A stretch of DNA of 64,000 nucleotides from Desulfarculaceae bacterium (GTDB taxonomy: Bacteria; Desulfobacterota; Desulfarculia; Desulfarculales; Desulfarculaceae): contig JAHLKT010000002.1 of assembly GCA_020444545.1 (NCBI GenBank), positions 712,870 to 776,869 on the forward strand. Reading direction: 5' to 3'. Positions 48,605-61,793 of the stretch are shown piece after piece (within the stretch, counting starts at the first letter, position 1; the number at the start of each line of letters is the position of its first letter). The translations under genes were made by a program, and so were the position numbers. Under the pieces are notes generated by a model. It did not search any database and was not told where the DNA came from. It worked only from the letters and a program-made list of their open reading frames with translations.

Positions 48605-50509
48605 TTAAGCCTTGGCCTTCACGGGCAGGATGGCGTTCTCCGGGCAAATCTGGGCGCAAAGCGCGCAGCCGATGCACTGCAGCGGGTTGATCCTGGCCTG
48701 GCCGTCCTCAACGAACATGGCCGGGCAAGCCACCTTTTTGATGCAGTCCATGTGGCCCTTGCACTTGTCCGGGTTCACCTGGAAGGACTTTTTGCTGCTG
48801 GGGGCCACCCGGCGGGCGAACAGCGGACACAGCTCCTTGGAGATGATCACGCTTACGCCCTCGTGGGCCACCGCCTCTTCAATGGCCTTTTTGGAGGCGC
48901 GCACCTTGAAGGGCTTGATGGTGGTCACGTGCTGCACACCCAGGCCCCTGACCAGGGGCTCTATGTCCAGGTGGGTGGTTGCGTCGCCGATGGCTTCGGT
49001 GTCCACCCCCGGGTGGGGCTGGTGGCCGGTCATGGCCGTGGTGCCGTTGTCCAGGATCACCAGGGTGAAGTTGTGGTTGTTGTGCACCGCGTTCACCAGG
49101 CCGGTGATGCCGCTGTGGAAGAAGGTGCTGTCGCCGATAAAGGCCACCACCTTCTGGCCCGTGGCCCGGGCGATGCCACCCGCGCTGGAAACCGAGGAGC
49201 CCATGCAGATGAGGAAGTCCGCCGCCTTGATGGGGGGCAGCAGTCCCAGGGTGTAGCAGCCGATGTCCGTGGGGTAGATGGCCTCCTCGCCCATGACCTC
49301 CTTGACCGCGTGATAGGTGGCGCGGTGGGGGCAGCCGGGGCAGAGGTTTGGCGGACGCCCCGGAGGCGCGGGCATGTCGGCCAGCTTGAGCTCGGCGGTG
49401 TTCTTGTACTTGAGGCCGAAGGTCTTGGCGATGACGGTGCGCACCAGGCGGGGGTTGTACTCGAAGGCGCGGCTCAGGAAGTCCGGCGCCTCGATGTCCA
49501 CGCTCTTGGACGGCACCTTGCCCGGAACCTTGCCCACGATCTTGACCTTGATGCCCTTTTCCTGGGCAATGGCCCTGACCGCCTCTTCCATGATGGGCTC
49601 GAGTTCTTCGATGACCAGGACCGTGTCCAGGCCCTTCAAGAAGTTGGCCAGCTTCTTCTCGGGCAGAGGGTAGCTCATGCCCACCTTGAAGATCTTGACC
49701 TTGCTCTTGGCGCCCAGGTCGGCCACGGCGTCGGCCACGTAGTTGTAAGACACGCCGTTGGTGATGATGCCCAGCTTGCCCCGGCCCTCGATCTTGTTCC
49801 AGGGGCTTCTTTCGCTGATGGCCTGGGCCTGGTTGTAGATGTTAAGCAGGCGCAGGTGCAGGTTGCGGCTTACCGCGGGCACCGTGACGAAGCGCATGGG
49901 CTCCTTGACGAACTTGGCGGTCTGCTTCACCTTGCCCAGCTTGTTCAGCTTCACCGCCTCGCGGGCGTGGTTCACCCGGGTGGTGGTGCGGATGAACACC
50001 GGCACGCCCAGCTCCTCGCTGAGGTCGAAGGCGTGGGTGACCATGTCCCTGGCCTCGGCCGGTCCGGCGGGCTCCAGCATGGGCAGGCCCGAAAGACGGG
50101 CGTAGTAGCGGTTGTCCTGCTCGTTTTGGCTGGAGAACAGCGAGGGGTCGTCGGCGGTGAGGATCACCATGCCGGCCCGCACGCCCACGTAGGCCAGGGT
50201 CATCAGGGGGTCGGCCGCCACGTTGACGCCCACGTGCTTCATGGTGCACAGGGTGCGCACCCCCGAGGCGGCGGCGCCCGCGGCGCACTCCATGGCCACC
50301 TTCTCGTTGGTGGAGTACTCGAAGTAGTACTTCACCTTGCCCGGGAATTGCTTCCTGAGACGGTAGAGGGTGTCGGGCACCTCCGATGAAGGAGTGCCCG
50401 GATAACAGGTGGCAAAGGCCATGCCCGCCTCCAGGGCGCCGCGCACGATGGCCTCGTTGCCCAACAGCAGGTGTTCTTTACCGCCCGAGGGAGTCAGCAA
50501 AACGTCCAT
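48605..50509 (-). CDS. iorA: Indolepyruvate ferredoxin oxidoreductase, alpha subunit
   Basis: 634 residues. It has an N-terminal pyrimidine-binding domain ('GNEAIVRGALEAGMAFATCY'), a TPP-binding domain ('FIGDSTFFHSGITGLVNAVH', 'TGHQPHPGVD') and C-terminal Fe-S cysteines ('CKGHMDCIKKVACP', 'CIGCALCAQICPENAI'). ATG at 50509 is preceded by 'ggagag' at good distance; the open frame upstream is not conserved. It is coupled to iorB. Confidence 0.94.
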   Translation of the reverse strand: MDVLLTPSGGKEHLLLGNEAIVRGALEAGMAFATCYPGTPSSEVPDTLYRLRKQFPGKVKYYFEYSTNEKVAMECAAGAAASGVRTLCTMKHVGVNVAADPLMTLAYVGVRAGMVILTADDPSLFSSQNEQDNRYYARLSGLPMLEPAGPAEARDMVTHAFDLSEELGVPVFIRTTTRVNHAREAVKLNKLGKVKQTAKFVKEPMRFVTVPAVSRNLHLRLLNIYNQAQAISERSPWNKIEGRGKLGIITNGVSYNYVADAVADLGAKSKVKIFKVGMSYPLPEKKLANFLKGLDTVLVIEELEPIMEEAVRAIAQEKGIKVKIVGKVPGKVPSKSVDIEAPDFLSRAFEYNPRLVRTVIAKTFGLKYKNTAELKLADMPAPPGRPPNLCPGCPHRATYHAVKEVMGEEAIYPTDIGCYTLGLLPPIKAADFLICMGSSVSSAGGIARATGQKVVAFIGDSTFFHSGITGLVNAVHNNHNFTLVILDNGTTAMTGHQPHPGVDTEAIGDATTHLDIEPLVRGLGVQHVTTIKPFKVRASKKAIEEAVAHEGVSVIISKELCPLFARRVAPSSKKSFQVNPDKCKGHMDCIKKVACPAMFVEDGQARINPLQCIGCALCAQICPENAILPVKAKA

Positions 50510-50613
50510 GCGTCCACTCTCCGGCCAAATGTGGGATTGATTCCAAGGGCTGCGCTGGGTGGCGCGGCACCATCGGGCGCCGGCCGACACCCCTCCTTTA
50601 GCGTCGCGCCCCA

Positions 50614-50643
50614 ATAGTTATTTAGTAGCTATAAAATAACTAT
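50614..50643. promoter_or_regulatory. Inverted repeat in the iorAB promoter region
   Basis: Perfect 10-bp arms ATAGTTATTT (50614-50623) and AAATAACTAT (50634-50643). It sits at the expected start site of the iorAB promoter and is an operator candidate. The remainder of 50510-50833 has no gene. Confidence 0.5.
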
Positions 50644-50833: not shown

Positions 50834-51226
50834 ATGCCTAAAATCTTGATTATCGACGACGACGACGATTTCCGCACCGCCACCCAGGCCATTCTGGAGG
50901 CAGCGGGCCACCAGGTCCTCAGCGCTTCGGACGGCAAGGTGGGCCTTGAGATCGTCACGGCCGAAGACCCCGACCTGCTGGTGCTGGACATCATGATGGA
51001 CTCCATCTACGAGGGGTTCTCGGTGATCACCACTCTGCGGGCCACCCCCGAGTACATGGACTACCGCGACATCCCGGTGCTCATGTGCTCCGCCGTTAAG
51101 CAGATCACTGGCGAGCGTTTTGATATTCCGCCCGAGGCGCGCATCGCCCAGGGCGACGCCTTCTTGGACAAGCCCTTTACTTCCGAGGCGTTGTTGGAGA
51201 AAGTCAATACTTTACTTCAACGTTAG
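50834..51226 (+). CDS. Single-domain response regulator
   Basis: 130 residues, receiver only: 'ILIIDDDDDFRTATQAIL', phospho-acceptor D52 in 'LVLDIMMDS', switch Ser in 'LMCSAVKQ' and Lys in 'FLDKPFTSEA'. There is no output domain, so it works by protein contact or phosphorelay. The hybrid kinase gene begins 12 nt downstream. Confidence 0.9.
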   Translation: MPKILIIDDDDDFRTATQAILEAAGHQVLSASDGKVGLEIVTAEDPDLLVLDIMMDSIYEGFSVITTLRATPEYMDYRDIPVLMCSAVKQITGERFDIPPEARIAQGDAFLDKPFTSEALLEKVNTLLQR

Positions 51227-51238
51227 GTCGGCCCGTTC

Positions 51239-52336
51239 ATGTCTCCGAAACGCTCACCGGTGCACGTACTGTGCATTGACGACGACGAGGTAGCTCGCGA
51301 GTCGTCCGAGGTTCTGCTCACCCGCTGGGGTTACCGGGTAAGCCTTGCGGTAAGCGGCGAGGCGGGCCTGGAGGCCCTGGAGCAGGACCCGCCGGACCTT
51401 ATCCTGGTGGATTTGCAGATGCCGGGCATCGATGGCCTGGAGGTTCTGGAGCGGGTGCGCGAGACCCATCCGGACATCATCTGCATCATGATCACCGGCC
51501 ACGCCACCCTGCAAACCGCCGTGGAGGCCATGAAGCAGGGGGCCTACGATTTCCTGGCCAAGCCCTTCTCCCCGGACGAGTTGAAACTCACCGTGGAGCG
51601 GGGTCTGGAACGCCGCCGGCTCATGTTGGAGACCTCGGAGCTTCGGGCCGAAAAGGCCCTCATGCAGGCCAACTTCATGACCCTGGTCTCCCACCAGATG
51701 CGCTCTCCCCTGGCCGCGGTGAGACAGCTTTTGGAAGTTCCGGCCAGCCAGGCCCTGGGCCCGGTGCCCGAGGCCTACCAGGGATTCATCACCCGGGCGG
51801 TGTACCGCTTGGATCTCTTGGCCCGCACCCTGAACACCTGGCTGGTGATGAGCCGCCTGGACCAGGAGGGCATCGAGAGCCGCCGCCAGGCCGAGACCCT
51901 GGGCGATCTGCTCGAGCAACTAATTAAGAGGGCCGAGGCCGACGCGGCCGCCGCGGACCAGACCCTGGCCCTGGAGCTGAGCGAAGACGCTCCGGTGGAG
52001 GTGGACCGCGAGAGCCTTTTGGAGGCGCTCTACAACCTGGTGAGCAACGCGGTGAAGTACAACCGCCCCCAGGGCACGGTTTCCATCCGGGGCAGCAAGG
52101 GGCCGGGCGAGGTGATCATCGCCATCAGCGACCAGGGCCCCGGGGTGCCGCCCCAAGAGGTGGAATACATTTTCGACGAGTTCTACCGGTCGCGCCGCAA
52201 GGAAATAAAAGCCAAACCGGGCACCGGCCTGGGCCTGGCCATAGCCCGCAAGGTGGTGCGGGCCCACGGCGGAGATATCACGGTGGAGTCGGAGGCCGGC
52301 CAGGGAGCGGTTTTCCTGGTTCGCCTGCCCTGCTGA
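51239..52336 (+). CDS. Receiver-histidine kinase hybrid protein
   Basis: 365 residues. Receiver 8-125 (D58 in 'LILVDLQMPGIDG'), HisKA with H152 in 'LVSHQMRSPLAAV', and HATPase_c with N box 'LVSNAVKYN', 'DQGPGVP' and 'GTGLGLAIARKVV'. No membrane segment, so it is a cytoplasmic kinase whose activity should be set by its own N-terminal receiver. It lies directly before the rnf promoter in the same direction, so it may control rnf, which is inference. Confidence 0.9.
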   Translation: MSPKRSPVHVLCIDDDEVARESSEVLLTRWGYRVSLAVSGEAGLEALEQDPPDLILVDLQMPGIDGLEVLERVRETHPDIICIMITGHATLQTAVEAMKQGAYDFLAKPFSPDELKLTVERGLERRRLMLETSELRAEKALMQANFMTLVSHQMRSPLAAVRQLLEVPASQALGPVPEAYQGFITRAVYRLDLLARTLNTWLVMSRLDQEGIESRRQAETLGDLLEQLIKRAEADAAAADQTLALELSEDAPVEVDRESLLEALYNLVSNAVKYNRPQGTVSIRGSKGPGEVIIAISDQGPGVPPQEVEYIFDEFYRSRRKEIKAKPGTGLGLAIARKVVRAHGGDITVESEAGQGAVFLVRLPC

Positions 52337-52601: not shown

Positions 52602-53969
52602 ATGAAGCTTTCAAGTTGTTTAAAGGGCATAGGCTTGCCCCGCCCGCCGGCGGCCGCCCCGCCCCAGCCGCTGCCCGCCCCTGCCAAGGTGTATCTGCCC
52701 ATGCGGCAGCACCAGGGCGCGGTGGCCCAGCCCAAGGTGGAGCCCGGCGACAAGGTAACCATGGGCCAGGTGATCGGCGCCTCCGATGATTTCGAGGCCG
52801 CCAACGTGCAGGCTACGGTAAGCGGCACGGTGGAGGCCATCATCGAGATGCCCGACCCCTCGGGCGGCATGGTCCCCACCGTGGTCATCGCCAACGACGG
52901 GGCCGACGCCTGGAGCGAGGAGCTCGCCTCTCCCGAGAACGCCCTCGCCTCCCTGGAAGAGGTTGGCCTCACCCGCCCCTCCCGCCTGCTCAAGCGAGTG
53001 CGCGAGGCGGGCCTGGTGCGGTCCCAGGTGCAGGGACGCCCCCTGCACGTGGACCTGAGCCCTCCCATGGCGCCCCAATCCTACCTCTACATGACCGGCA
53101 TCCCGGTGGTGCGGCCCATCGACACCTTGATCGTCAAGGCGGTGGACCCCGATCCGCCGGTTTGTCCCAACGCCTCGCTCCTGGGCGAGGCCGGCGACAC
53201 CCTGGCCGTGGGCGTGGCCGCCCTGGCCCGCATCAGCGGCGCCAAACGGGTCATCCTGGCCCTGCCCTCCGGGGTAGACGCCTCGGCCCTGAGCGCCCTG
53301 GCCAAGCAGCGCGAATGGGAGACCGCTTCGGTCAGCCAGACCAAGTATCCCTTTGCCAACGACCACCTTATGGTGCTCTCGCTCACCGGCCGCGAGGTCC
53401 CCACTCCCTACGGCGAGCCCCGGGACGTGGGCGTGACCGTGCAGCCGCTCTCCACCGCCCTGGACGTGGGTTCGGTGCTCCTGAGCGGCCGTCCGGTGAT
53501 GGAGCGGGTGTTCAGTGTGGCCGGCGAGGTCAAGAACCCCGGCGTGTTCAAGGTGCGCCTGGGCACCCCCATCGGCGAGGTGCTCCAAGCCGCCGGCGGC
53601 GGCCCCAGCCAGGCCGGCAAGGTGGTGGTGGGCGGCCCCATGATGGGTCTGGCCATCTACGACCTGGGCACCCCGGTGACCCGCGAGACCCAGGGCGTGT
53701 TCGTGCAGAGCGGACCCAAGGTCCGGCACTACGCGGACCATCCCTGCATCCACTGCGGGCGCTGCGTGGCGGTTTGCCCGGTCAACCTGATCCCCTCGGA
53801 GCTGGGCAAGCTCTGCGAGTTCCGCATGTACGAGGAAGCGGCCGAGCAGAACTTGATGAACTGCATCGAGTGCGGCTGCTGCGCCTACGTATGTCCGGCC
53901 CAGCGGCCCATGGTCCACTTCCTCAGGCACGGTAAAACCGAGGTCATGGCCGGGAGGATGGAGCAATGA
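52602..53969 (+). CDS. rnfC: Rnf complex subunit RnfC, with altered NADH/FMN region
   Basis: 455 residues. The N-terminal biotinyl-like hammerhead is clear ('YLPMRQHQGAVAQPKVEPGD', 'ATVSGTVEAI'). So is the SLBB-like middle ('GREVPTPYGEPRDVGVTVQP', 'PGVFKVRLGTPIGEVLQAAG') and the two C-terminal [4Fe-4S] motifs ('CIHCGRCVAVCP', 'CIECGCCAYVCP'). But residues 134-190, where RnfC normally has GLGGATFPTxxK and ECEPY for FMN/NADH, read 'REAGLVRSQVQGRPLHV' and 'VKAVDPDPPVCPN', and YPxGGE reads 'YPFANDH'. NADH oxidation by this subunit is therefore doubtful. It is first in rnfCDGEAB. Confidence 0.92.
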   Translation: MKLSSCLKGIGLPRPPAAAPPQPLPAPAKVYLPMRQHQGAVAQPKVEPGDKVTMGQVIGASDDFEAANVQATVSGTVEAIIEMPDPSGGMVPTVVIANDGADAWSEELASPENALASLEEVGLTRPSRLLKRVREAGLVRSQVQGRPLHVDLSPPMAPQSYLYMTGIPVVRPIDTLIVKAVDPDPPVCPNASLLGEAGDTLAVGVAALARISGAKRVILALPSGVDASALSALAKQREWETASVSQTKYPFANDHLMVLSLTGREVPTPYGEPRDVGVTVQPLSTALDVGSVLLSGRPVMERVFSVAGEVKNPGVFKVRLGTPIGEVLQAAGGGPSQAGKVVVGGPMMGLAIYDLGTPVTRETQGVFVQSGPKVRHYADHPCIHCGRCVAVCPVNLIPSELGKLCEFRMYEEAAEQNLMNCIECGCCAYVCPAQRPMVHFLRHGKTEVMAGRMEQ

Positions 53970-54970
53970 ACCAAAACCTTCTGACCGTATCCACTTCTCC
54001 GCACATCCTGGGGTGCACCACCCTGCGCTCCATGTATCTGGAGATGATGATCGCCCTGGCCCCGGCCCTGATCACCGGTCTGTACTTCTTCGGGGCGCCG
54101 GGCCTTATCACGGTCTGTCTGGCCGTGGCCTCGGCCATGGTCACCGAGTACGTGATCAGCCTGATCCTTAAAAAACCCTCCACCCTGGGCAACCTGCACG
54201 TGGTGCTCATGGGCCTGCTGATGGGCCTGATCCTGCCTCCGGGCGCGCCCTGGTGGCTCCCGGTGGTGGGCGGCTTCCTCACCGTCGCCTTGGGCATGAG
54301 CATCTTCGGCGGCAACGGCGCCTATCCCTTCAACCCCGTGCTGGTGGCTTGGGCCGCCCTGGCCATCTCCTGGCCCGAAGCCATGGGGGCCTATCTGGAG
54401 CCCATGGCCCTGGGTTCTGGCGACGATTGGATGGAGGCCGAAACCTTCCTGATGCAGCTCAAGGGCGACATCGGCACCCTGGAGATGTTCGAGCTGGGCA
54501 ATGTCTGGCTGGGCAAGATGGCCGGCGGTGTGGGCACCACCGGGACCTGGGCCCTGCTGGCCGGCGGCATCTACCTGGTCATCCGGCGCCTCATCCCCTG
54601 GCAGCTTCCCCTGGGCGCCCTCATCGGCGCCCTCGGCATGGGCCTGGTGGCGGTCTACACCGACGAGCGCATCGCCGAGATGGGCTATGAGGAGTTCGGG
54701 GCCTACTTGAACGTGGTCTGGTTCCACCTGGGGGCCGGCGTGTTTATGATCGCCGCCTTCTTCCTGGGGCCGGAGCCGGTCTCCAGCCCGGTCACCCCCT
54801 GGGGCACTTTCCTGTTCGGCCTGGGGGTGGGCTTGATGACCATCATCGTGCGCTTCTGGGGCAGCCCCATCGACGGCGCCTTCTACGGCGTCCTGCTGAT
54901 GAACGCGGCCACTCCCCTGTTGGATCGCATCAGGCCCCGGGTCATCGGAAAGGTGGTGAGCGGTGCGTGA
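53966..54970 (+). CDS. rnfD: Rnf complex subunit RnfD
   Basis: A 334-residue integral membrane protein with about 9-10 helices: 'SPHILGCTTLRSMYLEMMIAL' (given as SPHILGCTTLRSMY), 'GNGAYPFNPVLVAWAAL', 'GSPIDGAFYGVLLMNAATPLLD'. RnfD usually carries covalent FMN on Thr of (S/D)GAT. The equivalent stretch here reads 'EAETFLMQLKG' around T160, so the consensus is degraded although a Thr remains. It overlaps rnfC (ATGA) and rnfG by 8 nt. Confidence 0.93.
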   Translation: MNQNLLTVSTSPHILGCTTLRSMYLEMMIALAPALITGLYFFGAPGLITVCLAVASAMVTEYVISLILKKPSTLGNLHVVLMGLLMGLILPPGAPWWLPVVGGFLTVALGMSIFGGNGAYPFNPVLVAWAALAISWPEAMGAYLEPMALGSGDDWMEAETFLMQLKGDIGTLEMFELGNVWLGKMAGGVGTTGTWALLAGGIYLVIRRLIPWQLPLGALIGALGMGLVAVYTDERIAEMGYEEFGAYLNVVWFHLGAGVFMIAAFFLGPEPVSSPVTPWGTFLFGLGVGLMTIIVRFWGSPIDGAFYGVLLMNAATPLLDRIRPRVIGKVVSGA

Positions 54971-55538
54971 TATTATCAAAATGCTGGTGGTGCTCACCCT
55001 GATCTGCGCGGTGAGCGGATTCATGCTGGCCCTGGTGCACGACGTGACCCGGGAGCCCATCGAATACAGCCGTCTCAAGTTCATCAAGGAACCCGCGGTC
55101 AAGTCGGTGCTCACCGGCTATCAGAACGACCCCATTAAGGACCGCGTGTCCATCGACTTGGGCAAGGACAAGAAGGGCAAGCCGGTCAAGCTGATCGTCT
55201 TCCCGGCCAAAAAGGACGGCAAGACCTATGCCGTGGCCTTCGAGAGTAGCGCCCAAGGCTACCATGGCCCCATCGGGGTGATGGTGGGCGTGGACCTGGC
55301 CAGCAAGAAGCTCACCGGCATCAGCATCGTGGAGCACACCGAGACCCCTGGCCTGGGCGCGCGCATCATAGAGCCCAATTTCACCGATTCGTTCAAGGGT
55401 AAGGCCCTGGACAAGGAGCTGGGAGTGGGCGACATCAACGCCCTGTCCGGCGCCACCTTGTCCACCAAGGGCGTGGTCGCCGCGGTCAATCAGGCCCGGG
55501 CCACCTTGGACAAATACCGCGACAAAATGGTGCAGTAG
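54963..55538 (+). CDS. rnfG: Rnf complex subunit RnfG (flavinylated)
   Basis: 191 residues with one N-terminal membrane anchor and a periplasmic FMN-binding domain. The flavinylation motif 'ALSGATLSTKGV' is intact (acceptor T165), a target of the ApbE encoded at the end of the operon. 'EHTETPGLGARI' is also typical. Start is GTG at 54963 inside the rnfD end. Confidence 0.95.
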   Translation: MRDIIKMLVVLTLICAVSGFMLALVHDVTREPIEYSRLKFIKEPAVKSVLTGYQNDPIKDRVSIDLGKDKKGKPVKLIVFPAKKDGKTYAVAFESSAQGYHGPIGVMVGVDLASKKLTGISIVEHTETPGLGARIIEPNFTDSFKGKALDKELGVGDINALSGATLSTKGVVAAVNQARATLDKYRDKMVQ

Positions 55539-55550
55539 GGAGCGGCGGTC

Positions 55551-56162
55551 ATGAGCATAGCCAAGGAATTCACCAAGGGGCTATGGGAGATCATCCCGCC
55601 CTTCCGCCTGGTGCTGGGCCTCTGCCCCACCCTGGCGGTCACCACCTCGGCCGAAAACGGCATGGGCATGGGACTGGCCACCACCTTCGTGTTGGTCTGC
55701 TCCAACCTGCTGGTCTCGCTGCTGAGAAAAATCATCCCCAGCAAGGTGCGCATCGCGGCCTACATCGTGATCATCGCCAGCTTCGTGGTCATCGTCGAGC
55801 TGACCATGCAGGCCTACGTGTTCCCGCTGTATCAAGCCCTGGGCATCTTCATCCCCCTGATCGTGGTCAACTGCATCATCCTGGGCCGCGCCGAGGCATT
55901 CGCCGGCAAGAACGGGCCGGTGGCCTCCATCGCCGACGGCCTGGGCGTTGGCATCGGCTTCACCATAAGCCTGACCGTGCTGGGCGCCTTCCGCGAGATC
56001 CTGGGTAACGGCACCATCTGGGGCGCCAACCTCATGTGGGACTCCTACGAGCCCTTCGTGTTCATGGTGCGGGCGCCGGGCGCCTTCGTGGCCCTGGGCC
56101 TTTTCCTTGCGGCCATCAACCTGATCAGCCACGTGCTTGACCAGCGGAAGCGGAGGGCCTAG
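55551..56162 (+). CDS. rnfE: Rnf complex subunit RnfE
   Basis: 203 residues, six transmembrane helices, with the pseudo-symmetrical Cys segments 'GLCPTLAVTTSAENGMGMG' and 'VVNCIILGRAEAFA' that hold the intramembrane iron cluster with RnfA. Length and motifs are normal. Confidence 0.96.
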   Translation: MSIAKEFTKGLWEIIPPFRLVLGLCPTLAVTTSAENGMGMGLATTFVLVCSNLLVSLLRKIIPSKVRIAAYIVIIASFVVIVELTMQAYVFPLYQALGIFIPLIVVNCIILGRAEAFAGKNGPVASIADGLGVGIGFTISLTVLGAFREILGNGTIWGANLMWDSYEPFVFMVRAPGAFVALGLFLAAINLISHVLDQRKRRA

Positions 56163-56164
56163 CC

Positions 56165-56752
56165 ATGAGTTTCGGCGACTACATGCTGTTCATCGTTGGC
56201 GCCATCCTGGTCAACAACATCCTGCTGGCCAAGTTCCTGGGCAACTGCCCCTTCCTGGGGGTCAGCCGCCGCATGGACACGGCAACCGGCATGTCCATGG
56301 CGGTCATCTTCGTCATGGTCATGGCGGGCATGATCACCTGGCTGGTGCAGTACTACATCCTGGTGCCCCTGAACATCGAGTACCTCCAGACCATCGCCTT
56401 CATCCTGGTGATCGCCGCCCTGGTGCAGCTGGTGGAGATCGTGATGGCCAAGACGCTCCCGGCCCTATACCGGGCCCTGGGCATCTTCCTGCCGCTGATC
56501 ACCACCAACTGCGCGGTCTTGGGCGTGGCCATCATCAACATCAACGAAGAGTACGACTTCGTCGACACCCTGGTCTTCTCCTTCGCGTCGGCGGTGGGTT
56601 ACAGCCTGGCCCTGGTGCTCTTCGCGGGCATCCGCGAGCGCTTCATGCTGGTCAAGATGCCCAAGGCCTTCGAGGGCACGGCCATCGGTCTGGTGGTGGC
56701 GGGCTTTTTGGCCCTGGCCTTCTCCGGCTTCGCCGGCCTGGTCAGCCACTAG
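56165..56752 (+). CDS. rnfA: Rnf complex subunit RnfA
   Basis: 195 residues, six transmembrane helices: 'NNILLAKFLGNCPFLGVSRR' and 'TTNCAVLGVAIININE' supply the Cys pair matching RnfE. It follows rnfE by 2 nt. Confidence 0.96.
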   Translation: MSFGDYMLFIVGAILVNNILLAKFLGNCPFLGVSRRMDTATGMSMAVIFVMVMAGMITWLVQYYILVPLNIEYLQTIAFILVIAALVQLVEIVMAKTLPALYRALGIFLPLITTNCAVLGVAIININEEYDFVDTLVFSFASAVGYSLALVLFAGIRERFMLVKMPKAFEGTAIGLVVAGFLALAFSGFAGLVSH

Positions 56753-56830: not shown

Positions 56831-58921
56831 ATGTTGTTTGAAGCCCTGGCAATCGGAGGACTCGGCCTGGCTTCGGCCTTGGGCCTGGGCGTAGCCGCCA
56901 AGGTCTTCGCGGTCGAGGTGGACCCCCTGGTTGAAGCGGTGGAAGAGGCCCTGCCCGGCGCCAACTGCGGCGGCTGCGGCTATGCCGGCTGCTCCTCGGC
57001 GGCCCTGGCCATCGCCAGCGGAAAAGCCGCGGCCAACATCTGCGTGGGCGGCGGCCCCGAGGTGGCCGTGGCGGTGTCCGCGGTCATGGGCGTGGAGGTG
57101 ATTTACCGCGAGCCTGACGTAAGCCAGGTGGACTGCACCTACTCCACGGACATCGCCCAGCTCAAATACCAATACGACGGCGTTCAGGACTGCCGGGCGG
57201 CGGTGCTTCTGGCCGGCGGCCCCAAGGTCTGCGAGATCGGCTGCGTGGGGCTGGGCTCTTGCGTGAAGGTGTGCCCCTTCGGGGCCATCCAGATCGGCCC
57301 GGACAACCTGCCGGTGGTGGACCCCACCCTGTGCACCGGTTGCGGCAACTGCGAGAAGGTCTGCCCCAAGAACATCATCCACCTCAACTCGGTGACCCGC
57401 CGCATCCTGGGCTTCAACGCCGACTACAACTGCCTGGCCCCCTGCCAGGCCACCTGCCCCGCCCAGATCGACATCCCGGGCTACATCCGGGCCATCGGCG
57501 AGGGGCGCTACGACGACGCGGTCGGCATCATCAAGGAGCACAACCCCCTGCCCCTGGTTTGCGGCCGGGTGTGCCCCCATCCCTGCGAGGACCAGTGCCG
57601 CCGGGGCGAGACCGAAGAGCCGGTGAACATCAACCACCTCAAGCGCTTCGCGGCCGACTATGAGATGAACTCGGGCAAGCGCATCCAGCCCTTCTGCATG
57701 CCCAAGAACGATCGCAAGGTGGCCATCGTGGGCGGCGGCCCCGCCGGCCTCTCCTGCGCCTATTACCTGGCCCGCCTGGGCTACGCGCCCACCATCTTCG
57801 AGGCCCAACCCCATCTGGGCGGCATGCTGCGCTACGGCATCCCCGAGTACCGCCTGCCCAAGAAGACCCTGGATTGGGAGATCCAGGGCATCCTGGACCT
57901 GGGCTGCGAGGCCAAGACCGGCGTGGCCATGGGCAAGGACTTCACCCTGGAGAGCCTGAGGCAAGACGGCTTCGAGGCCATCTTCCTGGGCGTGGGCTGC
58001 TGGTCCAGCCGGGGCATGAGGGTCGAGGGCGAGGATCTGAACGGCGTGTTGCCCGGCACCAACATGCTCATCGACCGGGGCAACCTGAAGGATACCCCGG
58101 TCGGCGACCGCGTGGTGATCATCGGCGGCGGCAACACCGCCATGGACTGCGCCCGCACCTGCTGGCGCCTGGGCGCCAAGGAAGTCACGGTCCTCTACCG
58201 CCGCACCGAGAAGGAGATGCCGGCCAACGACATCGAGATCGAGGAGGCCAAGCACGAGGGCATCAAGTTCCACTTCCTGGCCGCGCCCACCAAGCTGGTC
58301 GGCGAGGGCGGCAAGCTCACCGGTCTTGAGTACATCAAGATGGAGCTGGGCGAGCCCGATGCCTCGGGCCGCCGCCGTCCGGTGCCCATCGAGGGCAGCG
58401 AGACCATCCTCGAGTGCGACAACGTGATCTCGGCCATCGGCCAGTTCCCGGACCTGGCCTTCCTGGAGGCCGATGCCGCAGCCAAGGACCTGGCCGTGAC
58501 CAAGTGGAACACCATCGACGCCAACGTCGACGCCGGCAGCACCAACATCCCCGGCGTCTTCTCCGGCGGCGACACGGTGACCGGCGCGGCCACCGCGGTG
58601 GAGGCCATCGGGGCCGGCCGCCGGGCGGCGCGGGCCATGCACAACTTCCTCAGCGGCGAAGAGGTGGAGGCTCCGGACAACTGGGTGCACAGCACCAAGG
58701 ACCTGCCCATGATCTCCGCCACGCCGGACGCGGTGCCCTCCGGGCCGCGGGCCAAGATGCCCGAGCTCAGCGTGGCCGAGAGGGCCAACAGCTTCGTGGA
58801 AGTGGAGCTGGGCCTCACCGAGGAGATGGCCAAGCAGGAGACCCAGCGCTGCCTGCAGTGCGGCCTCTATTGTTACCGCCGCCAGGGCCAAGATTACGAG
58901 GCCTGGAAATGGGAGAGGTAA
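56831..58921 (+). CDS. rnfB: RnfB fused to a GltD/NfnB-type NAD(P)H oxidoreductase
   Basis: 696 residues, against about 190-330 for ordinary RnfB. Residues 1-25 are the membrane anchor, 42-62 the 'LPGANCGGCGYAGCSSAALA' cluster domain, and 121-180 ferredoxin clusters ('CVGLGSCVKVCP', 'CTGCGNCEKVCP'). From about 195 a complete GltD-like module follows: Cys-rich N-terminal domain ('CLAPCQATCPAQIDIPGYI', 'CGRVCPHPCEDQCRRGE'), FAD Rossmann 'VAIVGGGPAGLSCAYYLAR' (about 297-315), NADPH Rossmann 'VVIIGGGNTAMDCART' (about 428-443) and 'GVFSGGDTVTGAATAVEAIG'. A last Cys pair lies in 'RCLQCGLYC'. This would let NAD(P)H exchange electrons directly with RnfB. It follows rnfA by 78 nt. Confidence 0.93.
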   Translation: MLFEALAIGGLGLASALGLGVAAKVFAVEVDPLVEAVEEALPGANCGGCGYAGCSSAALAIASGKAAANICVGGGPEVAVAVSAVMGVEVIYREPDVSQVDCTYSTDIAQLKYQYDGVQDCRAAVLLAGGPKVCEIGCVGLGSCVKVCPFGAIQIGPDNLPVVDPTLCTGCGNCEKVCPKNIIHLNSVTRRILGFNADYNCLAPCQATCPAQIDIPGYIRAIGEGRYDDAVGIIKEHNPLPLVCGRVCPHPCEDQCRRGETEEPVNINHLKRFAADYEMNSGKRIQPFCMPKNDRKVAIVGGGPAGLSCAYYLARLGYAPTIFEAQPHLGGMLRYGIPEYRLPKKTLDWEIQGILDLGCEAKTGVAMGKDFTLESLRQDGFEAIFLGVGCWSSRGMRVEGEDLNGVLPGTNMLIDRGNLKDTPVGDRVVIIGGGNTAMDCARTCWRLGAKEVTVLYRRTEKEMPANDIEIEEAKHEGIKFHFLAAPTKLVGEGGKLTGLEYIKMELGEPDASGRRRPVPIEGSETILECDNVISAIGQFPDLAFLEADAAAKDLAVTKWNTIDANVDAGSTNIPGVFSGGDTVTGAATAVEAIGAGRRAARAMHNFLSGEEVEAPDNWVHSTKDLPMISATPDAVPSGPRAKMPELSVAERANSFVEVELGLTEEMAKQETQRCLQCGLYCYRRQGQDYEAWKWER

Positions 58922-58923
58922 GA

Positions 58924-59931
58924 ATGACTAGGATGCTGCACCGCCGCTCCTTCTTGCAGCTGACCGGAGCCGCCCTGGGCGCGGCCGCCCTGCCCCTGGT
59001 GTCGCCGGCCATCGGACTGGCCAAGGTGACCCGCGAGCTCAGCGTGGCCCAACAGACCCGCATGATGATGGGCACCCTGGTTTCGGTCACCGTGCTGGAC
59101 GCTTCTCCGGTCAAGGCCCAGGAGGCCATGGAGAGCGCCTTCACGGCCATGCAACAACTGACCCCGGTCTTTGACCGTCACCGCCCCGTGGGCCAGGTGG
59201 CCGCCCTGAACAGCGAAGGCCGCCTGAACGACCTGGAGCCCCGCCTCAAACAGGTGCTGGACCTCTGCGCCCTTGTGCAGAAATCCACTGGCGGCGCTTT
59301 CGATCCCTCGGTGGCCCCGGTGGTGGACGCCATGGCCCACAGCTACGCCCAGGGCCGCAAGCCCACCCGTCAGGCGGTGGTCGAGGCCCTGAACGCGGTG
59401 GGCGGGGTGTCTTATGACGGCGCCAGCCTGCGCCTGACCAAAGAGGGCGCGGGCCTCACCCTGGACGGCGTGGCCAAGGGCTACATCGTGGACGAGGGCC
59501 TCAGGGCCGCGCACCGTTCCGGCGCGCGCCACGTGCTCATCAACGCCGGCGGCGACGTGGGCGTGTTGGGCGACCGGGGCGGCAAGCCCTGGCGGGTGGC
59601 CGTGTCCGACCCGGACGCGCCCACCAAGGCCAAGATGGTGGTGCCCATGACCAGCGGCGCCCTGGCCACCAGCGGCGACTACGAGGTCTACTTCGACCAG
59701 GAGCGGCTCTACCATCACATCGTGCGGCCCGACACCGGCCGCAGCCCGGGCTCGTCCCACAGCGTCAGCGTGCGCGCGCCCCAGGCGGCTCTGGCCGACG
59801 CCTTGGCCACCGCCTGCTTCGTGATGCCCCCGGCCCAGGCCACCCGCTTCCTGAACGCCCGGCCCCAGCTGGAGGGTCTCATCCTCACCCGCTTCGGCCA
59901 GCGCTACCAGACCAAGGGCTTCGCTGCCTAG
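58924..59931 (+). CDS. apbE: FAD:protein FMN transferase ApbE
   Basis: 335 residues. Twin-arginine signal ('RRSFLQLTGAALGAAAL') gives export to the periplasm. The ApbE core has 'TLVSVTVLDA', 'LDGVAKGYIVDEGL', 'HVLINAGGDVGVLG' and 'HHIVRPDTGRSP'. It attaches FMN to Thr of RnfG, and possibly RnfD. The ATG at 58924 lies 2 nt after rnfB; the upstream in-frame reading is rnfB DNA. It is the last gene of the operon. Confidence 0.95.
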   Translation: MTRMLHRRSFLQLTGAALGAAALPLVSPAIGLAKVTRELSVAQQTRMMMGTLVSVTVLDASPVKAQEAMESAFTAMQQLTPVFDRHRPVGQVAALNSEGRLNDLEPRLKQVLDLCALVQKSTGGAFDPSVAPVVDAMAHSYAQGRKPTRQAVVEALNAVGGVSYDGASLRLTKEGAGLTLDGVAKGYIVDEGLRAAHRSGARHVLINAGGDVGVLGDRGGKPWRVAVSDPDAPTKAKMVVPMTSGALATSGDYEVYFDQERLYHHIVRPDTGRSPGSSHSVSVRAPQAALADALATACFVMPPAQATRFLNARPQLEGLILTRFGQRYQTKGFAA

Positions 59932-60005: not shown

Positions 60006-61700
60006 TTAGAAGGGAATGCGGATGCCCGCCTGCACCTCGTTGGAGGTCATGTCCCCGCCCAACTCGCCGTCGTAGCGCAGATAGACCTGAGTGCCGTTGG
60101 TGCACACCAAAGTCAGGCCCACCCCCGGCACCACCGCGTCGCTGTCCTGGTCATACCCCTGGAAGGTCGCCCCGTGGTCCTGGTCGGCCAGCCGGGCGGT
60201 GATGTCCCCATCGCCCAGGGAGAATTGATGGGCCCAGCCCAGGCGGAACTGGGGCACCAGGCGCGTGCCGTTATCCAGGGTGAAGGAGCGGCTGAGGCGC
60301 AGGGCCAACTCGCCGCGCAGGGTGCTGGCCGTGAAGGAATCCACGCTCAGATCCAGGCTGTCCGCCCCGGTCTCGCTGAAGGCGTTGTTGTAAACGTAGT
60401 AGAAGTTGAGCCCGGCCAGGGGCTGCAAGGTCCAGCCGCCCACCAAGAAGTTCATACCAGCGTCCACTCCGGCCGAGAGGCCGTAGCCGTCCGGGTTGCT
60501 GTGGGGCGAGTAGTCCATGCCCGGGAAAGTGATGTCCCGGTTGGCCTCCTCCAGGTTGTAGCCCGCGGTCAACACGCCGTCCAGAAAGAAGCGCGGCGTG
60601 AAGTAGCTGGTGTACACCCCCATCTTGAGCCCCGATACCGCTCCCTTGCCGCTTACGTCCTTCCAGTCGAATTCGGTCTGGATGAAGCCCGCCCCGAAGC
60701 CTAGGATCAAGTTGGGGCCCAGCAGCCAGTCGGCCCCACCCAGGACCCCGCCGGAGTGGTAGTTGAAGCCGTAATCGTCGCCGTTGGTCTTGGCCTCGCC
60801 CAGGGCCCCGGCCAGGCGGCCCCAGATGTAGGTGTCGTTGATCTTCTGGTGGGTGGCCGCCGCCTCCCCGCCGGGGTTCAGCAGGCAGGTGCGCAGGTCG
60901 TTGCGCCGCTGGCTCAGAGCCTGGCTGAACAGGATGTCCTGGCGGGTGGCCAGACGCGACAAGGCGTCAAAACGCTGGGGCCCCAACTGGTTCAAGGCAT
61001 CGCGCCGCTGGGCGTCGTCGGGCAGATAGCTGAGCATAAGCTCGGTCACGTCCAGCAGGCTGTAATTGGGCACCGTGGCCCCGTCCAGGTACTGGCCCAT
61101 GATCCGGGCATTGCCCGAACCCACCCGCTCGGCCAGGGGCCCGGTATAGAGCAGGTCCGTGGTGGAGCGGTCGCCCTGATAGTTGCCCACGTCAATGAAG
61201 TTGTTCAGCAGGAATTGCTGCCCGCCGCCCGCGCCCCAGCCGGTAATGGGCCCGGCGTTGCCGGTGCGGCTCAGGGTGCCCGCCGGCATGCGCACCACGA
61301 TAACCCGGTCTGGATGCGCGGGCAGGGCGTAGAGGGAGCGCACCTGATAAGAATTCAGGCCCTTTACCGAAGAGGCGGCCATCATCCAGCGGCCCGCGCC
61401 GCCAAAGCGGTACCTGGCGCTGTTGGTGGGGTCGTATTTGTAGTACCGCACGAAATAGGCCACCCGGGTGGTGCGTATCTCGTATACCGTGGTGCCGTTG
61501 GCAAAGGGCAGAGTGCTGGGCGTGGCGCTTCCCGCGGCGATCAGTTCCTGGTTTTCCTGCGCGGCGCTCAGGGTCTGGGTTACCACGGCGCCATTGGGCA
61601 GGATAATGGGGTTCCAGGCCAGGGCGGGCGAGGCAAACCCGGCCAGGGCCAGGGCCACAATACAGACCCGGCCATACCAGGCTGAAAATCGGCGGACCAT
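60006..61700 (-). CDS. Autotransporter-type outer membrane beta-barrel protein
   Basis: 564 residues with a Sec signal (cleavage near residue 29, 'ASPALA/WN'). Residues 30-270 are a unique passenger-like region. From about 295 an autotransporter barrel follows: 'DTYIWGRLAGALGEAKTNG', 'GGVLGGADWLLGPNLILGFG', 'GLKMGVYTSYFTPRFFLDGV', 'LRLSRSFTLDNGTRLVPQFR', ending in 'NEVQAGIRIPF' with the terminal Phe recognised by Bam. ATG at 61700 has aggagg upstream. The passenger is short and lacks the repeats of classic adhesins. Function unknown. Confidence 0.8.
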   Translation of the reverse strand: MVRRFSAWYGRVCIVALALAGFASPALAWNPIILPNGAVVTQTLSAAQENQELIAAGSATPSTLPFANGTTVYEIRTTRVAYFVRYYKYDPTNSARYRFGGAGRWMMAASSVKGLNSYQVRSLYALPAHPDRVIVVRMPAGTLSRTGNAGPITGWGAGGGQQFLLNNFIDVGNYQGDRSTTDLLYTGPLAERVGSGNARIMGQYLDGATVPNYSLLDVTELMLSYLPDDAQRRDALNQLGPQRFDALSRLATRQDILFSQALSQRRNDLRTCLLNPGGEAAATHQKINDTYIWGRLAGALGEAKTNGDDYGFNYHSGGVLGGADWLLGPNLILGFGAGFIQTEFDWKDVSGKGAVSGLKMGVYTSYFTPRFFLDGVLTAGYNLEEANRDITFPGMDYSPHSNPDGYGLSAGVDAGMNFLVGGWTLQPLAGLNFYYVYNNAFSETGADSLDLSVDSFTASTLRGELALRLSRSFTLDNGTRLVPQFRLGWAHQFSLGDGDITARLADQDHGATFQGYDQDSDAVVPGVGLTLVCTNGTQVYLRYDGELGGDMTSNEVQAGIRIPF

Positions 61701-61793
61701 TCTAATTCCTCCTGAATTGCCAGCGGATGCGAGCAGGAAAAACTGCGTATTCAATTTTGGCTAATATCTGGCTTGTCAATGGTGAGAATGTTT

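What the first reader, a model, noticed from the sequence alone, without database searches (positions are those of the whole stretch)
56831..58921. RnfB-GltD/NfnB chimera
RnfB continues into a full FAD- and NADPH-type two-Rossmann oxidoreductase module. Ordinary Rnf takes NADH at RnfC and ferredoxin at RnfB. The fusion would put a second pyridine-nucleotide site at RnfB and could make the complex an NAD(P)H- and ferredoxin-coupled ion pump, in effect an Rnf-Nfn hybrid.
Basis: partly seen in the sequence, partly recalled or inferred. Interest (0 to 1): 0.8.

Follow-up and report, generated by a model that had tools for sequence, protein, structure and literature searches.

The report
Rnf pump with NADPH-type RnfB
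In a sulfate-reducing bacterium, an ion-pumping electron complex called Rnf carries an NADPH-oxidising module fused to its entry subunit (RnfB) and has lost the NADH site of its usual exit subunit (RnfC), so the cofactor site seems to have been moved rather than duplicated; such large-RnfB complexes have been reported before, but how they work has never been tested.

Summary
Observation confirmed. ORF 56831-58921 is one 696-aa protein: RnfB (1-195) joined to a GltD/NfnB-type FAD/NADP(H) module (about 200-685), last subunit of rnfCDGEAB-apbE. All FeS, FAD and NADPH motifs are intact, conserved in relatives and under purifying selection.

The interpretation needs correcting. This is not Rnf plus a second nucleotide site: RnfC has lost its FMN/NADH loop (GGAxFPT, ENNK), keeping only two 4Fe-4S clusters. 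Among 132 classified Rnf loci, all 77 with intact RnfC have ordinary RnfB; all 35 with fused RnfB have degenerate RnfC. A tree suggests RnfC decayed first and the GltD module was gained later. The module carries Lys (K271) where bifurcating NfnB has Glu and non-bifurcating StnC has Lys. It is StnC/NfnABC-like, and the genome has a separate classical NfnAB.

Best reading: NADPH enters at RnfB and drives the membrane electron loop; electrons leave to a non-NAD, one-electron acceptor (cytochrome c3, quinone or another FeS protein). This parallels Nqr. The acceptor is inferred, not shown.

Large NAD-site RnfB with degenerate RnfC was already reported in Desulfobacula toluolica and Desulfococcus multivorans (PMC5109826), so this is a new member of a known, untested kind.

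The parts
56831..58921 (+). rnfB-gltD fusion, 696 aa
   Evidence: conserved in relatives
56831..57415 (+). RnfB half (residues 1-195): N-terminal TM helix, mobile FdI 4Fe-4S (C46 C49 C54 C71), two-cluster ferredoxin domain
   Evidence: TIGR01944, PF04060, Fer4; all Cys 66/66 in fusions
57431..57700 (+). GltD N-terminal FeS domain (residues 201-290), C201 C205 C209 C244 C248 C252 C256 and K271
   Evidence: PF14691; K271 66/66 and aligned with StnC K170 and NfnB Glu
57701..58105 (+). FAD Rossmann domain, GGGPAGL and R341 (= NfnB R201)
   Evidence: PF07992
58106..58435 (+). NADP(H) Rossmann domain, GGGNTAMD, VLYRRTEKEMPA
58436..58918 (+). C-terminal FAD segment (VFSGGD) and tail with conserved C674 C677 C681
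52602..53969 (+). rnfC, 455 aa: barrel-sandwich, NuoF-like and SLBB folds and two 4Fe-4S motifs kept; FMN/NADH loop lost
   Evidence: TIGR01945 297 bits
52998..53051 (+). place of the lost FMN loop in RnfC (REAGLVRSQVQGRPLHVD instead of xxAGIVGxGGAxFPTxVK)
53966..54970 (+). rnfD; covalent-FMN motif altered to EAETFL (Thr kept; SATPL in ordinary Rnf)
54963..55538 (+). rnfG, covalent-FMN motif SGAT kept
55551..56162 (+). rnfE, 2Fe-2S Cys kept
56165..56752 (+). rnfA, 2Fe-2S Cys kept
58924..59931 (+). apbE, FMN transferase that flavinylates RnfG/RnfD
   Evidence: PF02424
50834..52336 (+). response regulator (50834-51226) and hybrid sensor kinase (51239-52336) upstream of rnfC, conserved in much of the family; probably regulatory

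Best explanation
This is a rearranged Rnf complex in which the pyridine-nucleotide site has moved from the exit subunit (RnfC) to the entry subunit (RnfB). NADPH reduces the FAD of the fused module. Electrons then pass one by one through the module's 4Fe-4S clusters, the RnfB ferredoxin clusters and the mobile RnfB FdI cluster to the RnfA/E 2Fe-2S, RnfG FMN and RnfD flavins, coupled to ion export as in ordinary Rnf. They leave not to NAD+ but to a one-electron acceptor of higher potential: periplasmic cytochrome c3 via RnfG, a quinone, or a FeS protein docking on the two RnfC clusters. Shown by sequence: the fusion, its intact FAD/NADPH/FeS motifs, loss of the RnfC FMN/NADH motifs, retention of the RnfA/E/G redox motifs, and the co-occurrence across genomes. 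Inferred: NADPH as physiological donor, direction of flow, ion coupling and the acceptor.
For: FAD and NADPH motifs intact, and conserved with short branches in the window's lineage; purifying selection. RnfC lacks GGAxFPT and ENNK, present in 77/77 ordinary RnfC; the FMN loop is also present in all three RnfC of solved NAD-type Rnf complexes. 35/35 complexes with fused RnfB (27 linked, 8 with RnfB encoded elsewhere) have such an RnfC, against 20 of 97 with ordinary RnfB. The tree puts RnfC decay before GltD gain (clade support 0.999). Other lineages show the same RnfC decay together with a multiheme cytochrome gene: Methanosarcinaceae L094 and several early-branching loci with ordinary RnfB. 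Seventeen of the 35 fused complexes also have a multiheme cytochrome gene beside rnfC. The genome is a sulfate reducer with cytochrome c3 genes and only this one Rnf. In D. alaskensis, whose relatives L123/L199/L200/L203/L207 have the same degenerate RnfC, ferredoxin:NAD-coupled ion transport could not be shown in vesicles (PMC4841214). Nqr is a precedent for an FAD/NADH input module replacing RnfB and an RnfC homologue without cofactors (PMC12174285, PMC11889175).
Against: No biochemistry exists. The 35 cases descend from about one fusion event, so they are not independent. The window operon has no cytochrome gene, so the acceptor is unknown. RnfC keeps both 4Fe-4S clusters, an overall RnfC fold (Z 45 to 9eri_C) and acidic residues (DPDP for ECEP), so FMN binding by a remodelled loop is not strictly excluded. 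A derived clade of the same fusion has lost the NADPH motif, so NADPH oxidation is not needed in every member.
Confidence: 0.55

Rival explanations
1. Side-branch model: ferredoxin still docks on RnfB, and the GltD module is a built-in ferredoxin:NADP+ reductase that equilibrates reduced ferredoxin and NADPH on the donor side. Both can feed the pump, whose acceptor is elsewhere.
For: RnfB keeps all its FeS clusters. A gene that looks like iorA (indolepyruvate:ferredoxin oxidoreductase, a source of reduced ferredoxin) lies divergently upstream in the window, with ORFs of like size at the same place in relatives. NfnB-type modules exchange electrons between NADPH and ferredoxin (PMC10482914).
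Against: No ferredoxin-docking evidence; the genome already has NfnAB for this exchange. Compatible with, rather than opposed to, the loss of the RnfC NAD site.
Confidence: 0.22
2. One reading: ordinary NADH site at RnfC plus a second, NADPH site at RnfB; an NADH/NADPH/ferredoxin-coupled Rnf-Nfn hybrid pump.
For: The NADPH-type module is real; Pfam's NuoF domain still matches RnfC weakly (PF01512, 36.7 bits).
Against: The RnfC FMN loop and ENNK motif are gone here and the FMN loop in all 35 fused systems.
Confidence: 0.08
3. The GltD module is no longer an NADPH enzyme but a docking scaffold for another electron donor, as in the derived 'dead' clade.
For: That clade has lost YRRxxxEMPA and GGD motifs but keeps nearly every FeS Cys; its unlinked members often sit beside NuoE/HydB-like genes and rseC.
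Against: The window's protein has all motifs and lies in the conserved, short-branched 'live' group.
Confidence: 0.1
4. NfnB-like flavin-based electron bifurcation at the fused FAD, splitting NADPH electrons between ferredoxin and the Rnf chain.
For: Homology to NfnB; R341 (= NfnB R201) is conserved 66/66.
Against: K271, not Glu, at the proximal cluster, as in StnC, which lost bifurcation although it keeps the Arg (PMC10482914); no NfnA partner in the operon; separate NfnAB with Glu (NLERF) in the same genome.
Confidence: 0.05

Closest known systems
Desulfobacula toluolica Tol2-type Rnf / Rnf2 of Desulfococcus multivorans (PMC5109826)
   Same: RnfB of about 700 aa with added nucleotide-binding sites; RnfC reported to lack the NADH-dehydrogenase and ligand-binding domains; a mode of action other than classical Rnf was suggested there
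   Different: Window RnfC still scores for the NuoF-like and SLBB folds but lacks the FMN loop. Window family has no cytochrome gene and an intact NADPH motif; whether the Tol2 protein has the intact or the decayed motif was not tested here
StnABC of Sporomusa ovata and NfnABC of Caldicellulosiruptor/Thermococcus (PDB 8oh5, 9bov, 9n5u)
   Same: Best sequence and structure matches to the fused module; in StnC it is a non-bifurcating NADPH:FAD input domain wired through 4Fe-4S clusters; Lys at the proximal cluster
   Different: In StnC the module is fused to a NuoG/FdhF-like part and feeds a soluble bifurcating StnAB/HydBC core; here it is fused to membrane-bound RnfB
NfnAB transhydrogenase
   Same: GltD-type fold with two 4Fe-4S clusters, FAD and NADP(H) site
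   Different: NfnB has Glu at the proximal cluster and an NfnA partner; neither here. The genome has a separate NfnAB
Na+-NQR
   Same: Works-like parallel: NAD(P)H/FAD input module at the RnfB position, RnfC homologue without FMN
   Different: NqrF is unrelated to GltD, NqrA has no 4Fe-4S clusters, and Nqr reduces quinone; no evidence of a quinone here
Canonical Rnf (A. woodii, C. tetanomorphum, A. vinelandii)
   Same: Six subunits CDGEAB, core cofactor residues of A, E and G
   Different: NAD site of RnfC lost, RnfD FMN motif altered, RnfB extended by an NADPH-type module

Membership tests
Rnf complex (structural membership) | rnfCDGEAB subunit set in one operon | tested here: met
   RnfC, G, E, A and B above the TIGRFAM cut-offs (RnfD 195 against 207 bits)
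Rnf complex (structural membership) | Cys of the RnfA/E 2Fe-2S and covalent-FMN Thr of RnfG | tested here: met
Rnf complex (structural membership) | covalent-FMN motif SATPL of RnfD | tested here: inconclusive
   Thr kept in an altered context (EAETFL); lost in most fused relatives
Canonical ferredoxin:NAD+ Rnf | FMN/NADH site in RnfC (GGAxFPT, ECEP, ENNK) | tested here: not met
Tol2-type (large RnfB) Rnf | about 700-aa RnfB with added nucleotide-binding domain and an RnfC without NADH site | tested here: met
   definition from PMC5109826
NfnB (bifurcating) | Glu ligand at the proximal 4Fe-4S | tested here: not met
   K271, 66/66 fusions
NfnB (bifurcating) | NfnA partner | tested here: not met
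   none in the operon; an NfnA-like ORF lies next to a separate NfnB
StnC/NfnABC-type GltD input module | Lys at the proximal cluster, FAD and NADPH Rossmann motifs | tested here: met
StnC/NfnABC-type GltD input module | fusion to a NuoG/FdhF part with HydBC-like partners | tested here: not met
   fused to RnfB; no such genes in the window operon
Canonical ferredoxin:NAD+ Rnf | ion transport coupled to ferredoxin:NAD+ activity | not testable with these tools
   needs the purified complex

The most novel reading that the evidence does not exclude
A second, independent invention of an Nqr-like machine: an Rnf core turned into an NADPH-oxidising, ion-pumping oxidoreductase that delivers electrons to periplasmic cytochrome c3 or quinone, by first discarding the RnfC NAD site and then acquiring a StnC-type NADPH module on RnfB.
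Probability: 0.3. Interest if true: 0.75.

Novelty: new member of a known kind. Interest (0 to 1): 0.5.

Why it matters
Rnf of sulfate reducers is routinely drawn as ferredoxin:NAD+ oxidoreductase. If the relocation reading is right, that scheme is wrong for a large branch of Desulfobacterota, including relatives of the genetic model Desulfovibrio alaskensis, and their energy budgets need redrawing: the pump would run from NADPH (and/or ferredoxin) to cytochrome or quinone. It also gives a second example, beside Nqr, of the same membrane core being rewired by swapping its cytoplasmic entry and exit modules.

Tried and rejected
Sequencing or annotation artefact: rejected, since the fusion is conserved in sister genomes. 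Ferredoxin docking at RnfC with NADPH at RnfB as an energy-conserving ferredoxin:NADP+ pump: rejected on thermodynamic grounds, because flow from RnfB to RnfC is the ion-exporting direction, and ferredoxin to NADPH would run the other way (inference). AlphaFold model of the fusion: only pLDDT 66 / pTM 0.60, so it was used only for the fold match of the module (Z 31 to NfnABC; rmsd 13 A, probably from domain placement in a weak model) and not to judge residue geometry. Multiheme cytochrome in the window: none found. Counting the 35 cases as independent: rejected, they form one clade.

Full report
Observation. The ORF at 56831-58921 (+) is a single 696-aa frame. Its first 195 residues are RnfB and residues 200-685 are a GltD/NfnB-type flavoprotein. 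It closes the operon rnfC-D-G-E-A-B and is followed by apbE. Relatives in the same genus and family carry the same fusion in the same operon at 72-93% identity. A GTDB-wide scan returned 26 fused loci, among them Desulfocarbo indianensis, Desulfopila aestuarii, a Desulfobacula, Desulfotignum and Salidesulfovibrio brasiliensis (frame split there). In a phylum-wide sample about 38 of 394 genomes have a full-length fused protein (my count).

The module looks like a working NADPH enzyme. FAD motif GGGPAGL, NADPH motifs GGGNTAMD and YRRTEKEMPA, and the second FAD motif VFSGGD are all present. The best solved relatives are the GltD parts of NfnABC and StnABC. In StnC this part takes electrons from NADPH and passes them one by one through 4Fe-4S clusters, without bifurcation (PMC10482914). 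That paper compares two residues: an Arg near FAD, present in both NfnB and StnC, and the ligand of the proximal cluster, Glu in NfnB and Lys (or Cys) in StnC. The window's protein has Lys (K271), invariant in 66 of 66 fusions, whereas the classical NfnB of the same genome, beside its NfnA, has NLERF, i.e. Glu. So the module is StnC-like, and the genome does not depend on it for Nfn function.

The partner subunit changes the meaning. All three solved NAD-type RnfC proteins have the FMN loop GxGGAxFP; the window's RnfC has RSQVQGRPLH there. I classified 132 loci that have complete C, D, E and A genes and a known RnfB; four more with no RnfB found were left out of this count. In 77, RnfC keeps G-G-A-x-F, the acidic pair of ECEP and E-x-N-K in every one (77/77 at each position tested), and RnfB is ordinary. 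In 35, RnfB is the fusion (27 in the operon, 8 encoded elsewhere in the genome), and none has an intact RnfC. The remaining 20 have ordinary RnfB but degenerate RnfC. They include a Methanosarcinaceae archaeon with a five-heme cytochrome gene beside rnfC; in Methanosarcina acetivorans a membrane-bound cytochrome and Rnf have been linked to ferredoxin-dependent respiration without NAD (own knowledge; PMC6703419 and PMC4023990 were seen only as abstracts). They also include Desulfovibrio loci with a decaheme cytochrome. Fisher's test gives p = 4e-18, but the cases are related by descent and this number must not be read as independent evidence.

Order of events. In a FastTree of concatenated C, D, E and A, 51 degenerate-RnfC loci form one clade (support 0.999). 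The fused loci, with the Desulfovibrio loci nested among them, form a subclade (0.952). The first branches have ordinary RnfB, mostly with a multiheme cytochrome. The simplest history is: NAD site of RnfC lost in a cytochrome-coupled Rnf; then the GltD module gained on RnfB; later the cytochrome gene lost from the operon in the window's lineage, and the GltD part lost in Desulfovibrio. In the family of the early branches (f39) there is a separate 600-aa protein matching residues about 110-684 at 50-53% identity, i.e. ferredoxin domain plus GltD without the membrane anchor, a plausible source of the fused part.

Inside the membrane core, the RnfG FMN motif and the RnfA/E Cys are kept. The RnfD FMN motif SATPL, with Thr in 77/77 ordinary loci, has Thr in only 8 of 35 fused loci. 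The window keeps Thr in an altered context, EAETFL. RnfC keeps its fold (AlphaFold pLDDT 82; Z 45.2, rmsd 2.4 A over 432 residues to A. woodii RnfC), with low confidence just beside the former FMN loop, in the inserted stretch 151-170.

Mechanism. In Rnf, flow from RnfB through RnfA/E, G and D to RnfC is the ion-exporting direction (PMC9588780, PMC11889175). With NADP(H) on RnfB and no NAD site on RnfC, ion export can be driven only if the acceptor is more positive than NADPH. Candidates are the cytochrome c3 pool (four PF02085 loci, one a 142-aa tetraheme protein), menaquinone, or a cytoplasmic FeS protein docking on RnfC. The organism has dsrA, so sulfate reduction is likely, and it has only one Rnf. 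Shown: anatomy and motifs. Inferred: donor, direction, coupling, acceptor.

Not every fusion is alive. A derived, long-branched clade has lost the NADPH motifs while keeping nearly every FeS ligand. Many of its members are not in an rnf operon. Several sit next to rseC and to NuoE/HydB-like genes, as if another NAD(P)H dehydrogenase had taken over. The window's protein is not of that clade.

Novelty. Desulfobacula toluolica Tol2 and Desulfococcus multivorans were described as having a different Rnf with a roughly 700-aa RnfB carrying NAD-binding sites and, in Tol2, an RnfC without the NADH domain (PMC5109826). An rnfCDGEA cluster with a cytochrome gene and no rnfB was described in Desulfotignum phosphitoxidans (PMC4046663). 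Hence the window is a new member of a known but biochemically untested kind. What seems to be added here is the strict co-occurrence, the order of events, the StnC-like Lys, and the live/dead split; I did not find these in the papers searched, but most subscription journals were not searched.

Noticed in passing
L072:7040-12523 (also L068, L071, L075, L079, L080): Unlinked RnfB-GltD genes with decayed NADPH motifs lie directly beside NuoE- and HydB/NuoF-like genes (FMN loop GRGGAGFP intact) and rseC, resembling StnABC with RnfB in place of the NuoG part.
   Followed up: partly
L123, L199, L200, L203, L207: RnfC of Desulfovibrio-type loci also lacks the FMN/NADH motifs and the RnfD FMN Thr, with a decaheme cytochrome gene upstream; the usual ferredoxin:NAD+ label for this Rnf is doubtful.
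   Followed up: partly
L050-L056 (G001, G005, G006, G007, G008, G009, G010): The window's family carries a second, unlinked RnfB-GltD paralogue (about 49% identical) with decayed NADPH motifs; G005 has it although no RnfA was found in that 94% complete genome.
   Followed up: partly
G107:C16:66978-68693, G136:C6, G163:C7, G331:C5, G332:C92: 600-aa soluble-looking proteins matching residues about 110-684 of the fusion (ferredoxin domain + GltD, no membrane anchor), mostly in genomes of the sister lineage with ordinary RnfB.
   Followed up: no
L205, L216, L218, L219, L230: Rnf loci with unusual gene order (G-E-A-B then C-D) and RnfC lacking the FMN loop but with RnfD SATPL intact; sister to the Methanosarcinaceae locus in the tree.
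   Followed up: no
48605-50614 (-): Gene that reads as iorA (indolepyruvate:ferredoxin oxidoreductase alpha), divergent from the rnf operon; ORFs of like size and orientation occur at the same place in relatives.
   Followed up: no
60006-61754 (-): 582-aa ORF that reads like an autotransporter beta-barrel protein downstream of apbE.
   Followed up: no
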